Shown here in pieces: positions 1,801 to 58,732 of a stretch of 64,000 nucleotides of DNA. The position numbers and the translations under genes were made by a program. A model generated the notes under the pieces. The model did no database searches. It was given only the letters and a program-made list of their open reading frames with translations, and was not told the DNA's origin. The stretch is from Actinomycetota bacterium (GTDB lineage Bacteria > Actinomycetota > Thermoleophilia > Solirubrobacterales > 70-9), in the NCBI GenBank assembly GCA_018268675.1, contig JAFDWB010000092.1, positions 62,001 through 126,000 of the forward strand, given 5' to 3'. Position 1 is the stretch's first letter. The number at the start of each line of letters is the position of its first letter.

Positions 1801-1847
1801 TCGTGCGTATCCGGTGACGGAGAGGGCACAGGCCCCGCAGAGCGCCA

Positions 1848-1898
1848 CGGTGAGCTCGCAGAAACCCGCGGTATGCGCGGAGAACTGCGAACTCACCG
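1848..1898. repeat. Palindrome B1 (GTTCGCA/TGCGAAC family)
   Basis: Arms CGGTGAGCTCGCAG (1848-1861) and CTGCGAACTCACCG (1885-1898) are inverted repeats with one mismatch. The interior contains CCCGCGGTATGCGCGG. Read on the minus strand it aligns with B3 at 46.86 kb (shared CCGCGGGTTTCTGCGA). Confidence 0.7.
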
Positions 1899-1927
1899 GG
1901 GCACTCCGACGCTCCCCTGGCGTCGCC

Positions 1928-18395: not shown

Positions 18396-18466
18396 GGGAG
18401 GAGTCGGGGGACCCCCTCTCTCACGAACTGCAGGGAGGTTCGTTCGGGGGTCCCCCGACTCCTCCC
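18396..18466. repeat. Type C hairpin C1 (rpmA-obgE)
   Basis: Perfect 21-bp arms 18396-18416 and 18446-18466. The 29-nt centre contains CTCACGAACTGCAGGGAGG then TTCGTTC. It starts 12 nt after the rpmA stop. The arms differ from those of the other type C copies, but the centre is closely shared with C2 and C3. Confidence 0.9.
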
Positions 18467-19796: not shown

Positions 19797-19867
19797 GGGA
19801 CGAGTCGGGAGACCCCCTCACTCACGAACAGCGTGGAGGTTCGTTCGGGGGTCTCCCGACTCGTCCC
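19797..19867. repeat. Type C hairpin C2 (obgE-proB)
   Basis: Perfect 21-bp arms 19797-19817 and 19847-19867 around a 29-nt centre containing ACTCACGAACAGCGTGGAGG then TTCGTTC. It starts 8 nt after the obgE stop. Arms resemble C1 (GACGAGTCGGGAGACC against GAGGAGTCGGGGGACC), and each left-arm change is matched in the right arm. Confidence 0.9.
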
Positions 19868-34069: not shown

Positions 34070-36181
34070 GTGCTCGGGGCCGGTCGATACCTGGTGGGTG
34101 TGGTCGAGTTGCTGGCGCTGGTCGGCTTCGCCTGGCTGGGCGCGGCGCGCGTGCGACGGCGGCTGCTGGCGGAGCTCGCCGGGGCGCCGGGCGTCCTGGC
34201 GACGGCCGTCCTGGCGATCGCCCTCCTGATCTGGGTGGCGGAGCTCCTCGGCACGGTGTCGCTCTTCAGGCCGATCCCCTACCTGCTGGTGATGGCGGTG
34301 CTCGGCGTCGTCCTGTACCTGAAGGTCGCGCCCGCGGATGGCGACCGTCGTTTCTCGGCGCCCCGAGCCGAACGCCCGGCCCTCTGGCCCACGGTGGTCG
34401 CGCTGGTGATCGCCGGGATCGCGATCGGCCACTTCGCCGGCGGCGTGAAGCTCCGCCTCGGCACCGGCATGACCGGCTTCGACTCGACCTGGTACCACGG
34501 CCCCTTCGCCGCCGGCTTCTTCCAGTCCGGCAACACGATCGACCTGCACTTCATCGCGCCGCAGTTCCTCGCCTGGTTCTACCCGGCGAACAGCGAAGTC
34601 GTCGCCGCGATCGGGATGCTCGCCTTCCACCGGGACCTGCTCTCGCCGCTGCTGAACCTCGGCTGGCTGCTGGGATGCCTGCTCGCCTGCTGGTGCATCG
34701 GGCGCCCGTTCCGGGTCGCGCCGTGGTCGTTGGCGCTCGGCGCGATCGCCCTCAGCGTCCCGGCGCTGGCCGACCAGGCCGGGGAGGCGCGCAACGACAT
34801 CGTCGGGATCTTCTTCCTCCTCGCCGCAATCGCGATCGGGCTGAACGCGGCGGCCGCGAGGGGGGGCACCGAGGAAGGGGCCGAGCGGCAGTGGCTCTCG
34901 ACCGGCGCGTTGCTCCTCGTCGGCCTGGCGGTCGGCTTGGCGGCGGGGACGAAGCTCAACTTCCTGCTCCCCGCCGCTGTGCTCGTGCTCGGGCTGACGG
35001 CGCTGGCGCCGCGCGGCAGACGGTGGCGGACGCTCCTGTGCAGCGGCGGGATGGCGCTGGCGGGGGGCGGCTACTGGTACCTGCGGAACCTGGTCCAGGC
35101 CGGGAACCCGCTGCCCTGGGTCCACCACCTGGGCCCGATCAGCCTGCCCGCCCCCGAACAGGCGCTCGGCGGCCGCGAAGCCCACAGCGTCTTCAGCTAC
35201 CTGACGAACGGCTCGGTGTGGTCGGGATGGTTCCTGCCCGGCCTCCACGGCGGCCTCTGGATCATCTGGCCTCTCCTCGGCGCCGCGGCGCTCGCGGGCC
35301 TGGTCCTCGCCGTGGTCACGCTCCGCGGTCGACGGGCCGAAAACCCGTCAGATGGTCCGGTTTTCGGCCCGTCGACGTCCGTCGCCGGCGTGCTGGCGGT
35401 CGCGGGCCTGGTCGGGATCGCGGCGGCGGTGGCGTGGCTCGTGTCGCCGACCTCGGCCTCTGGGCCCGCGGGCATGCCGCGGGGGTTCGAATCCGGGCTC
35501 CGCTACCTCACTCCGGCGCTGATCCTGGGCCTGGCGCTGCTGCCGACCGTGCCGCCCGTCCGCGCCTTCGCCGCCCGCCTCGCGTCCCTCGGCCCGCGCC
35601 TTGGCGACCGCCCCGTCGCGCCCGACGCCCCCGGCGACTGTCTGCATCCGGGGACGCATAGCGACCCCAAACGCGGACGCAACGTCGAGGAAGAGCGACT
35701 CCCGCGTCGATGGGTGGCCACGATCGTCGCCGCGGCGATCGTGCTCGGCGTGATCGTCGGCTACCCGGTCGAGCGCCACTACCTCCAGAACCGCTACCGC
35801 AACCCGAGCTTCACGACGCCCGGGCTCGACGCCGCCTTCGCCTGGGCGCGCGACATCTCCGGCGCCCGCATCGGCACGACCAGCACCCGCCAGTACCCGC
35901 TCTTCGGCACCGACCTCTCCAACCACGTCGCCTACCTGGGAATCGAACGCCCCAACGGGGGCTTCGAGGCGGCCCCCAGCTGCCGCGAATTCCGCCGCCT
36001 GGTCAACCATGGCCACTACGACTATGTGGTCGCCACCCGCGACCGGATCGAACCCGGCAAGCCCGCCTTCCCTCCGCAAGCCGCCTGGACGGCCGGCCCT
36101 GACGCCGAAGTGGTGCTGAGGAAAAAGCCCACCGTCGTCTTCCGCATCACCGGCCCCCTCGACCCGAAGACCTGCCCGTAG
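34070..36181 (+). CDS. GT-C-like polytopic membrane protein with repeat insertion
   Basis: 703 aa, about 12 TM helices and a C-terminal soluble region. TGFDSTWYHGPFAAGFFQSG near 135-155 resembles the first periplasmic loop of GT-C glycosyltransferases that use lipid-linked sugars, but no family Asp motif is certain. An in-frame type A palindrome (35328-35376) encodes GRRAENPSDGPVFGPSTS (about 419-436), between two TM helices. A second unusual hydrophilic segment (about 528-545, GDCLHPGTHSDPKRGRN) may also be an insertion. GTG start abuts the murJ stop. Confidence 0.7.
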   Translation: MLGAGRYLVGVVELLALVGFAWLGAARVRRRLLAELAGAPGVLATAVLAIALLIWVAELLGTVSLFRPIPYLLVMAVLGVVLYLKVAPADGDRRFSAPRAERPALWPTVVALVIAGIAIGHFAGGVKLRLGTGMTGFDSTWYHGPFAAGFFQSGNTIDLHFIAPQFLAWFYPANSEVVAAIGMLAFHRDLLSPLLNLGWLLGCLLACWCIGRPFRVAPWSLALGAIALSVPALADQAGEARNDIVGIFFLLAAIAIGLNAAAARGGTEEGAERQWLSTGALLLVGLAVGLAAGTKLNFLLPAAVLVLGLTALAPRGRRWRTLLCSGGMALAGGGYWYLRNLVQAGNPLPWVHHLGPISLPAPEQALGGREAHSVFSYLTNGSVWSGWFLPGLHGGLWIIWPLLGAAALAGLVLAVVTLRGRRAENPSDGPVFGPSTSVAGVLAVAGLVGIAAAVAWLVSPTSASGPAGMPRGFESGLRYLTPALILGLALLPTVPPVRAFAARLASLGPRLGDRPVAPDAPGDCLHPGTHSDPKRGRNVEEERLPRRWVATIVAAAIVLGVIVGYPVERHYLQNRYRNPSFTTPGLDAAFAWARDISGARIGTTSTRQYPLFGTDLSNHVAYLGIERPNGGFEAAPSCREFRRLVNHGHYDYVVATRDRIEPGKPAFPPQAAWTAGPDAEVVLRKKPTVVFRITGPLDPKTCP
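35328..35376 (+). repeat. Palindrome A3 inside a coding region
   Basis: Perfect 18-bp arms 35328-35345 and 35359-35376, of which GGGCCGAAAACC is shared with A1 and A2. The 13-nt centre CGTCAGATGGTCC matches the A1/A2 centre better when reversed (8 of 13), so this copy seems to lie in the opposite orientation. It is read through in frame by the GT-C-like gene. Confidence 0.8.
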
Positions 36182-36237: not shown

Positions 36238-36371
36238 GACCCTTGAGGGACTGAGACCGGCCTGGCGGCCCGCACCTGCTAGCCGCGGTCGGCCAGCCTG
36301 CGGCGTGCGGCGGGCCGACCGCGCCTCGGCCCGGGCCGCGCCGGGGAGCGCCCGGCCTTCCGGTGACGGCC

Positions 36372-36424
36372 CCGGTGAGTTCGCAGTTAGCCACACATAG
36401 CGTGGATAAGTGCGAACGCGCCGG
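36372..36424. repeat. Palindrome B2
   Basis: GTTCGCA...TGCGAAC arms with inner TTAGCCAC/GTGGATAA (one mismatch) and an ACATAGC centre. Its reverse complement aligns closely with B5 at 56.03 kb (TCCACGCTATGTGTGG). Confidence 0.7.
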
Positions 36425-36525
36425 GGAGGCGCGGGGATGGGCGCGCCGTCGAGGCGCAAGCCGGCCCGGCCATCGAGCCCCGCAAGCTGCCCGGCGGCGC
36501 CCACCTTCATACTCGTGGCTCGCGC

Positions 36526-41508: not shown

Positions 41509-42399
41509 GTGATCCGCCTGGCAGTGCGTTGCGCGCCCGACCAGGCCGACCTCGTGTTGGCCGAGCTGACCGTGTTGGCGCCGAACGGGGTGGAGGAGGA
41601 GCGTGGCCCCGGGTACGTCGAGTACGCGATCTACGGCGGCGAGGGGGAGCTGCCGGAGCTGGGGGAGATCGACGCGGTGGTCGGCGGCCGGCCGATCGAG
41701 GTTTCCTCGACCGAGGTTCCCGACGACTGGGCCGACCGCTGGCGCGACTTCCACAAGCCGCTGCTGGTCGGCGGACGCCTCTGGCTGCGCCCGTCCTGGG
41801 AGCCCGCGCGCGACGGCGCGATCGACCTCGTCGTCGACCCCGGCCAGGCGTTCGGCACCGGTGCCCATCCGACCACCCGCCTGTGCCTCGAGTACCTCCT
41901 CGAGCTGGCCGACGCCGGGGAGGCGCGGGGAGCGCTGACGGACCTCGGCACCGGCTCCGGCGTCCTCGCGATCGCGGCGGCGAAGCTCGGCTGGGACCCG
42001 GTCACGGGTTACGACCACGAGCCCGCCGCGATCGGGGCGGCAGCCTCCAACGCCCAGGTCAACGGCGTCGAGCTGACCCTCCACCGAACGAACCTGCGCG
42101 AATCCCTCCCCGAGCTCGCCCCGACCTGCGTCGCCAACCTGACCTCGCCGATCCTCAAGGCGGTCGGGGGCCGGCTGCAAGGAATCTCGGGGGAGACTCG
42201 GCGGAACAACAGCGGGGAGGTTCCGGCGAGTCTCCCCCGAGATTCCTCTCCAAGGCTCCCTCGGGTTCTTCTGCTGTCCGGGATCCTGCCCGCCGAGGTG
42301 GATGAGGTCGCGGCGGCGTTCGCTCCCTCCGGATTCCGCGAGCAGGACCGCCGCACGCTGGGCGACTGGGCCGCGCTCTTCCTCCGATGCCCCCGATAA
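41509..42399 (+). CDS. prmA: Ribosomal protein L11 methyltransferase with in-frame hairpin insertion
   Basis: SAM-dependent methyltransferase of L11. 296 aa from GTG 41509. SAM motif I is DLGTGSGVLAIAAAKLGW, with GTGAHPTTRLCLEYL before it. After VANLTSPILKAVGGRLQ the expected next strand LLLSGIL is delayed by about 27 residues (GISGETRRNNSGEVPASLP then RDSSPRLP), encoded by type C hairpin C4. The frame is maintained, so the product may be functional, but the insertion lies inside the Rossmann domain. Confidence 0.9.
   Translation: MIRLAVRCAPDQADLVLAELTVLAPNGVEEERGPGYVEYAIYGGEGELPELGEIDAVVGGRPIEVSSTEVPDDWADRWRDFHKPLLVGGRLWLRPSWEPARDGAIDLVVDPGQAFGTGAHPTTRLCLEYLLELADAGEARGALTDLGTGSGVLAIAAAKLGWDPVTGYDHEPAAIGAAASNAQVNGVELTLHRTNLRESLPELAPTCVANLTSPILKAVGGRLQGISGETRRNNSGEVPASLPRDSSPRLPRVLLLSGILPAEVDEVAAAFAPSGFREQDRRTLGDWAALFLRCPR
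42180..42247 (+). repeat. Type C hairpin C4 inside prmA
   Basis: Perfect 21-bp arms 42180-42200 and 42227-42247. The 26-nt centre (42201-42226, containing GGAACAACAGCGGGGAGGTT) is identical to that of C6 at 58.68 kb read on the minus strand, while the arms differ. It is translated within prmA. Confidence 0.9.
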
Positions 42400-46804: not shown

Positions 46805-46857
46805 CGTCCCTTTGCCTCTCGGGCGTCCAGTCGGCCCACGCCCCGTTCCTCCCCCAG

Positions 46858-46905
46858 TGCGTTCGCACTTTCCCGCGCTATCCGCGGGTTTCTGCGAACT
46901 CACCG
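46858..46905. repeat. Palindrome B3
   Basis: GTTCGCA (46861-46867) pairs with TGCGAAC (46893-46899), and CCCGCG with CGCGGG around CTATC. It ends in the family motif CTGCGAACTCACCGG. Confidence 0.7.
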
Positions 46906-46927
46906 GGGGGCGGGCCGGGCCTCTACG

Positions 46928-55965: not shown

Positions 55966-56010
55966 CGAGTTCGCAGTTGGCCACAACAGTTGTGGCCAAC
56001 TGCGAACTCG
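55966..56010. repeat. Palindrome B4, perfect 45 bp
   Basis: 22-bp arms 55966-55987 and 55989-56010 with a single central A (GTTCGCAGTTGGCCACAAC and its complement). It is the most perfect palindrome in the window and directly follows the half type A arm. Confidence 0.85.
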
Positions 56011-56033
56011 ATCGCGGGCGCACCCGTCCCCGC

Positions 56034-56087
56034 CGGTGCGTTCGCACTCATCCACGCTATGTGTGGGTAACTCCGAACTCATCCCGG
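56034..56087. repeat. Palindrome B5
   Basis: Imperfect arms (GTTCGCA / CCGAACTC) with inner TCCACGCTATGTGTGGGTAA. It aligns with the reverse complement of B2 at 36.37 kb. Confidence 0.65.
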
Positions 56088-56131
56088 GATTCCACGGGAG
56101 GCTGGCGGCTCTCCGAGCTGGCGCAGGCCGA

Positions 56132-56183
56132 GGCGCGGCCATCGCCCTCATAGCCGGCCGAACATGAGGGGGATGGCCGCGCC
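56132..56183. repeat. Palindrome E2 (variable arms, conserved centre)
   Basis: 19-nt arms 56132-56150 and 56165-56183 with one mismatch around TAGCCGGCCGAACA. The centre and inner CCCTCA/TGAGGG match E1 at 1.77 kb, but the outer arms do not. It lies 17 nt past the methyltransferase stop on the minus strand. Confidence 0.7.
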
Positions 56184-58105: not shown

Positions 58106-58171
58106 GAGCCCGTGGGGATGACCCGGCCGAACCACAGCGGGGAGGTTCCGGCGGGTCATCCCCACGGGCTC
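58106..58171. repeat. Type C hairpin C5 (upstream of lipoprotein gene)
   Basis: Perfect 20-bp arms 58106-58125 and 58152-58171; 26-nt centre containing CGAACCACAGCGGGGAGG then TTCCGG, one base different from C4/C6 within the AACNACAG part. It lies 39 nt past the pfkA stop and just before the lipoprotein gene. Confidence 0.9.
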
Positions 58172-58656: not shown

Positions 58657-58732
58657 GGGGAGCGACCCCGGGGGTGACCCGCCGGAACCTCCCCGCTGTT
58701 GTTCCGCCGGGTCACCCCCGGGGTCGCTCCCC
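58657..58732. repeat. Type C hairpin C6 (downstream of lipoprotein gene, inverted)
   Basis: Perfect 25-bp arms 58657-58681 and 58708-58732, the longest of the set. The 26-nt centre read on the minus strand is identical to C4. It lies 5 nt past the lipoprotein stop and 46 nt from the stop of the convergent SDR gene. Confidence 0.9.

What the first reader, a model, noticed from the sequence alone, without database searches (positions are those of the whole stretch)
42180..42247. A type C hairpin sits in frame inside prmA
The PrmA reading frame continues through C4 and adds about 27 residues between VANLTSPIL...GGRLQ and the expected LLLSGIL strand. The centre is identical to intergenic copy C6. 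This is direct evidence that the element moves or is copied into new sites, and that it may be tolerated as a protein insert.
Basis: partly seen in the sequence, partly recalled or inferred. Interest (0 to 1): 0.7.

Follow-up and report, generated by a model that had tools for sequence, protein, structure and literature searches.

The report
Old DNA hairpin translated inside PrmA
A hairpin-forming repeat found in dozens of copies in one little-known group of actinobacteria sits, still in reading frame, inside essential housekeeping genes such as prmA and cysS, where it has been inherited for a long time with a fixed loop while its stem changes sequence yet stays perfectly paired.

Summary
A 28-bp hairpin (42180-42247) lies in frame inside prmA, and its 20-base core recurs exactly elsewhere in the genome, including C6. 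But this is not a fresh jump. Seven species in two genera carry related hairpins at the same prmA loop. Others lack it or keep what look like scars, and distant relatives have a short loop. The family is confined to 11 of 12 species of this Solirubrobacterales genus and 2 of 3 of a sister genus. Copies also sit in frame in CysS (11 species), an Lhr helicase (two sites), an MMPL transporter, BirA, an NuoG-like protein, CofE and a hydantoinase. Intergenic copies cluster within 25 nt after stop codons, with the core mostly sense. Arms differ between nearly all copies yet stay Watson-Crick paired: among own-genome C-type copies, 51 two-sided changes against no G-U pair. G.T and A.C mismatches are equally rare, which points to DNA-level upkeep, most simply template switching. 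That also explains the inverted core on shared prmA arms between G000 and G003. It is REP-like / Rickettsia-palindromic-element-like with the opposite conservation pattern: a new variant of a known kind. No mobilising enzyme or target-site duplication was found.

The parts
41509..42399 (+). prmA, ribosomal protein L11 methyltransferase, 296 aa
   Evidence: ORF; Pfam PF06325 9.3e-43; PDB relatives 1ufk/2nxc
42180..42247 (+). C4 hairpin element in frame inside prmA
   Evidence: orthologue alignment
42180..42207 (+). left arm of C4 (28 nt)
42220..42247 (+). right arm of C4 (28 nt)
42204..42223 (+). conserved core GAACAACAGCGGGGAGGTTC (12-nt loop plus closing 4 bp), here on the sense strand of prmA; antisense in G003, G011, G001, G031, G026
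58106..58171 (+). C5, C-type copy downstream of a stop codon, core on + strand
58657..58732 (-). C6, C-type copy between convergent genes, core on - strand; an orthologous copy exists in G008, G003 and (with D core) G011
18396..18466 (+). D-type copy (core TCTCTCACGAACTGCAGGGAGGTTCGTTC), 11 nt after a stop codon
19797..19867 (+). D-type copy, 8 nt after a stop codon
39217..39284 (+). D-type copy, 4 nt after a stop codon

Best explanation
C4 is one copy of a small palindromic DNA element restricted to this Solirubrobacterales genus and a sister genus. Shown: the element has a conserved core (12-nt C-type loop, 28-29-nt D-type core) on 20-28-bp arms whose sequence is almost free but whose pairing is nearly perfect. 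Shown: intergenic copies lie just after stop codons, mostly core-sense, and several copies sit in frame in variable loops of conserved proteins. Inferred: the prmA copy entered the helix-strand loop before the two genera split, was inherited vertically, was lost in some lineages by internal deletion, and is translated as a harmless loop extension. Inferred: the arms stay complementary because replication template switching (one arm copied from the other) homogenises them. The same process occasionally inverts the core (prmA of G000 versus G003), and recombination between copies may swap C and D cores on retained arms (MMPL transporter). Inferred: the core is kept because something in trans recognises it as a folded single strand; that factor is unidentified and is not a RAYT/IS200-type Y1 transposase.
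For: Family and distribution: 11/12 congeners and 2/3 of sister genus g9, and none of 35 other family genomes, for both the C model and the D model. Exact core in only two named genomes of 84,980 species. Vertical inheritance: orthologous arms more alike than different-site arms (0.62 vs 0.56; clade K 0.72 vs 0.61; permutation p 0.0005); prmA G000/G003 0.89, G001/G031 0.83; intergenic orthologues including C6. Translation: in frame with 3n length changes at prmA, CysS, Lhr, MMPL (Pfam). DNA-level upkeep: own C copies 51 two-sided changes, 0 G-U; D copies 120 two-sided vs 7 one-sided; mismatches G.T 12 vs A.C 13 in 2744 pairs; paired double changes 41 transversions vs 24 transitions. Core inversion with arms kept; C/D core exchange on like arms in MMPL. 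Scars: one arm left in G004 prmA and G007 Lhr (0/500 shuffles), parts of both outer arms in G008 prmA (p about 0.01). Template switching is reported to homogenise arms and invert spacers (PMC8604942, PMC8794818).
Against: No single mutational event was caught: the nearest genomes differ by about 10% in protein. Arm comparison was gapless from the centre, so symmetric indels can mimic double changes. The copies were gathered with a pairing model and a hairpin finder, which favours intact stems. Sense orientation after stop codons (45 of 59, p 6.5e-5) suggests selection on RNA or on transcription, which template switching alone does not predict. Half-hairpin sites in G004 and G007 could instead be pre-insertion states. 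The tree is weakly supported within the genus and G005 (78% complete) has no copies at all, so gain and loss order is uncertain. Independent insertion at a tolerant loop cannot be excluded for all seven prmA copies.
Confidence: 0.6

Rival explanations
1. The hairpin is selected as RNA: a 3'-end (terminator-like, mRNA-stabilising or ribosome-stalling) element whose loop binds a protein; in-gene copies are tolerated strays.
For: 59 of 75 intergenic copies lie within 25 nt of a stop codon (79% vs 49% expected in the same gaps), 45 of 59 core-sense; only 5 divergent sites. The core is more conserved at codon third positions than the CysS flanks (0.76 vs 0.60).
Against: Almost no G-U pairs among many two-sided changes; G.T equals A.C; antisense copies inside genes; no U tract (16% T after the stem); no Rfam match.
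Confidence: 0.25
2. One reading: a currently mobile element recently copied into prmA.
For: Occupied and empty orthologous sites; Lhr site 2 occupied only in G000 and G001 among those read; many copies with the same core.
Against: Same prmA site occupied in seven species of two genera with site-specific arms; few pairs of copies in one genome with near-identical arms; no Y1 transposase in 12 genomes; no target-site duplication readable.
Confidence: 0.1
3. Repeated independent insertion (or de novo palindrome formation) at a permissive prmA loop rather than one ancestral insertion.
For: Patchy occupancy, both core orientations, C and D cores, a single remaining arm in G004 and an unrelated perfect palindrome in G010 at the same loop.
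Against: Arms shared between G001 and sister-genus G031, and between G000 and G003, beyond nearly all different-site pairs.
Confidence: 0.3
4. The hairpin is skipped by the ribosome or removed from the mRNA, like mitochondrial byp elements or intervening sequences, so the protein never contains it.
For: Hairpin elements inside conserved genes do behave so elsewhere (from general knowledge).
Against: All orthologous inserts found keep frame and lack stops although their lengths vary; skipping would not need that.
Confidence: 0.03

Closest known systems
Rickettsia palindromic elements (RPE; Ogata 2000, 2002, as summarised in PMC10969869 and PMC6649704)
   Same: Dispersed palindromes, many in frame inside unrelated conserved genes and also intergenic, tolerated by the proteins.
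   Different: About 68 bp, not about 150 bp; a different phylum; conserved core with free but perfectly paired arms, whereas RPE arms are reported to lose repeat identity over time; reading frames differ between sites, so no conserved peptide.
REP / REPIN elements with TnpA-REP (RAYT) (PMC8266576, PMC3116915)
   Same: Short dispersed hairpins, mostly extragenic, with a loop- or bulge-type feature (a fixed G.G mismatch beside the core in many C copies).
   Different: No conserved GTAG-type tag beside the stem; no Y1 transposase in any of 12 genomes; arms not conserved in sequence; in-gene copies.
Template-switch-maintained inverted repeats (PMC8794818, PMC8604942, PMC6649704)
   Same: Arm homogenisation, compensatory changes, spacer inversion with arms kept, occurrence in coding sequence.
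   Different: Here a dispersed multi-copy family with a conserved core, in a bacterium, over genus-scale divergence.

Membership tests
Rickettsia palindromic elements | palindromic repeat inserted in frame in several unrelated protein genes | tested here: met
   PrmA, CysS, Lhr (2 sites), MMPL, BirA, NuoG-like, CofE, hydantoinase
Rickettsia palindromic elements | RPE sequence family / Rickettsia host | tested here: not met
   Exact core found only in two Solirubrobacterales MAGs among 84,980 species genomes; no RPE sequence was compared directly
Rickettsia palindromic elements | conserved encoded peptide | tested here: not met
   Core is read in different frames and strands at different sites
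REP/REPIN mobilised by RAYT | genome encodes a Y1 (IS200-like) TnpA-REP | tested here: not met
   PF01797: 0 of 12 genus genomes, 5 of 14 controls positive
REP/REPIN mobilised by RAYT | conserved tetranucleotide (GTAG type) next to the hairpin | tested here: not met
   No conserved bases at the foot of the C-type stems in A1/A2; D-type flanks were not aligned
MITE | terminal inverted repeats matching a parent transposon plus target-site duplication | tested here: inconclusive
   Inserts replace length-variable loops, so no duplication can be read; parent transposon not searched
Rho-independent terminator | GC hairpin followed by U tract, downstream of genes | tested here: not met
   16% T in the 12 nt after the stem; many copies inside genes
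Template-switch-maintained inverted repeat | two-sided changes without wobble bias and spacer inversion with conserved arms | tested here: met
   single events not observed
Any Rfam family | score above gathering threshold | tested here: not met
   only one tRNA in the window

The most novel reading that the evidence does not exclude
The conserved loop, not the whole hairpin, is the unit that is exchanged: cores are flipped and swapped (C for D) between fixed palindromic cradles whose arms are continuously rewritten by template switching, under recognition of the folded core by an unknown single-strand hairpin-binding factor. A bacterial genus thus carries translated, self-correcting palindromes in essential genes.
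Probability: 0.3. Interest if true: 0.8.

Novelty: new variant of a known kind. Interest (0 to 1): 0.6.

Why it matters
In-frame palindromes are best known from Rickettsia and there are reported to decay with time. Here is a second, phylogenetically remote case in which hairpins survive genus-scale divergence inside essential genes (cysS, prmA) while their stem sequence turns over. It gives many parallel natural experiments on whether compensatory change in stems comes from selection or from template switching, a long-standing question, because the same sites can be read in a dozen species and on both strands.

Tried and rejected
RAYT/IS200 mobiliser: none in own genome or genus. Rfam: no match. 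Arms derived from the host target: examined at empty sites. Only one- or two-arm remnants were found, which fit deletion scars at least as well, so it was not adopted. Target-site duplication: not readable because the loops differ in length. The first D model R2 was built with pairing shifted by one column and was discarded for R3. The pair count on A3 includes most strong hairpins on both strands and was not used for the argument. G010's prmA palindrome was tested as a second dispersed family: no other exact copy in the genus. The three papers that mention both Solirubrobacterales and palindromes are soil and water community studies judging by title and abstract, not reports of such repeats.

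Full report
What is there. The window (contig C91 of a 4.2-Mb, 95-contig genome) comes from a Solirubrobacterales lineage: congener G011 matches the record 'Solirubrobacterales bacterium 70-9' and G003 the record 'RYN_247' (contig lengths agree). At 42180-42247 a hairpin with 28-nt arms and the 12-nt loop AACAGCGGGGAG lies inside prmA. It folds far better than shuffled sequence (z -6.7), and prmA reads through it in frame. The 20-nt core occurs 12 times in the genome within two mismatches, none in the reversed control; C6 (58657-58732) has it exactly.

Orthologues of prmA. Of 61 genomes searched, 59 gave a PrmA match. Aligned after correcting strand, the insert lies between the helix after the VANLTSPIL motif and the LLLSGIL strand; Thermus PrmA has 12 residues there against 33 here. 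G006, G007, G008, G005 and G002 have short loops. G003, G011, G001 and G009, and sister-genus G031 and G026, have related hairpins at the same place. The core lies sense to prmA in G000 and G009 and antisense in the other five. G000 and G003 share arms (0.89 identity; none of 238 different-site pairs as high) but have opposite cores; the G031 arm finds the G001 prmA copy as its best match among 116 copies. The prmA element is therefore old. G004 keeps one arm and G008 pieces of both; G010 has an unrelated perfect palindrome that is unique in the genus.

A genus-wide family. Covariance models of the C type (R1) and D type (R3) find copies in 11 of 12 species of the genus and 2 of 3 of the sister genus, and in none of 35 other family genomes at E <= 1e-6. 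Hits reach 64 for D in G003; strong C hits are counted on both strands. G005, 78% complete, has none. The window's three D hairpins share the core GAAC..GC..GGGAGGTTC with C4, so the types are subfamilies of one family.

Inside genes. Copies lie in frame in CysS (11 of 12 congeners; empty in G005 and in G019), a large Lhr-type helicase at two sites, an MMPL transporter (G000, G003, G008, G011; empty in G006 at 86% identity), a BirA-type biotin ligase, an NuoG-like molybdopterin oxidoreductase, an F420 ligase and a hydantoinase (Pfam). Lengths at each site differ by multiples of three and no stop intervenes, which argues for translation. Frames differ between sites (EQQRGGSG in CysS and Lhr; NNSGEV in PrmA and MMPL), so the DNA, not the peptide, is what is kept. 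In CysS the core's third codon positions are more conserved than those of the flanks (0.76 vs 0.60), while positions 1 and 2 are less so (0.84 vs 0.95).

Between genes. With a simple codon-model gene caller, 59 of 75 intergenic copies with an adjacent stop lie within 25 nt of a stop codon (79%, against 49% for random placement in the same gaps). In 45 of these 59 the core is on the sense strand (p 6.5e-5). There is no U tract. Only 5 sites are divergent.

How the stem evolves. In the 11 own-genome C copies, 51 cells have both sides changed and none has a G-U or other one-sided standard pair. In 19 D copies 120 have both sides changed and 7 one side. Sliding the partners by one column destroys the signal. 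Over 116 distinct copies, G.T and A.C mismatches are equal (12 and 13 of 2744 pairs), so there is no strand on which wobble is tolerated. Paired double changes between orthologues are mostly transversions (41 vs 24), which do not pass through wobble directly. This points to upkeep at the DNA level. Template switching between arms is reported to do just this and to invert spacers (PMC8604942, PMC8794818). Arms at orthologous sites are more alike than at different sites (p 0.0005), so arms are inherited and rewritten over time. At the MMPL site G000 and G003 have a C core while G008 and G011 have a D core on arms 0.81-0.86 alike; at the orthologue of C6, G011 has a D core and three others a C core. 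Core exchange is therefore likely; its route is inferred, not shown.

Compared with what is known. In behaviour it is nearest to the Rickettsia palindromic elements (in-frame, in unrelated genes) and to REP elements (short, mostly extragenic hairpins). It fails tested defining features of both: sequence family, host and conserved peptide for RPE; GTAG-type tag and Y1 transposase for REP. RPE arms are reported to lose identity with time (PMC6649704), the opposite of what is seen here.

Limits. All genomes are one per species and many are fragmentary. The genus tree is weakly supported. The copy set was collected by a pairing model, and orthologous arms were compared without gaps. Movement was not observed directly and no mobilising enzyme is known. 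That selection on RNA contributes (position and sense bias after stop codons) remains open.

Noticed in passing
window 35328-35376: A type B palindrome (GTCGACGGGCCGAAAACC..GGTTTTCGGCCCGTCGAC) also lies in frame inside a long ORF (34070-36181, + strand, membrane-protein-like); two sister copies are at 1928 and 23339. A second palindrome family may also sit inside a protein gene.
   Followed up: partly
window 1844-1902, 36319-36429, 46851-46911, 55966-56138: Type A palindromes (GAGTTCGCAGTT / AACTGCGAACTC) with conserved arms and small variable loops: the reverse conservation pattern of the C/D family. Similar ones occur in G008 loci (L056, L126), one scored as in frame (L126:1321-1369).
   Followed up: partly
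L023 / L273 (G010 prmA): Perfect 13-bp-arm palindrome GGCGAGTTTGTCA..TGACAAACTCGCC in the same prmA loop, unrelated to the C family and unique in the genus.
   Followed up: yes
G005 (same genus) and G019 (sister genus): No copy of either type detected although their relatives carry many; useful for finding a co-distributed gene. G005 is only 78% complete.
   Followed up: partly
window 18396-18466 and 19797-19867: Two D-type copies 1.4 kb apart have 19 of 21 arm positions identical, one of the few near-identical arm pairs within a genome; perhaps a recent local copy.
   Followed up: no
C-type stems, for example L001-L009: A fixed G.G mismatch in the upper stem next to the core in most C copies, reminiscent of the conserved bulge in E. 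coli REPs.
   Followed up: no
L231 (G009 Lhr-type helicase, second site): The loop contains what looks like a decayed hairpin, GGGGGGACCCCCCCT..AAGGGGGGGTGGGTCCCC, without the core.
   Followed up: no
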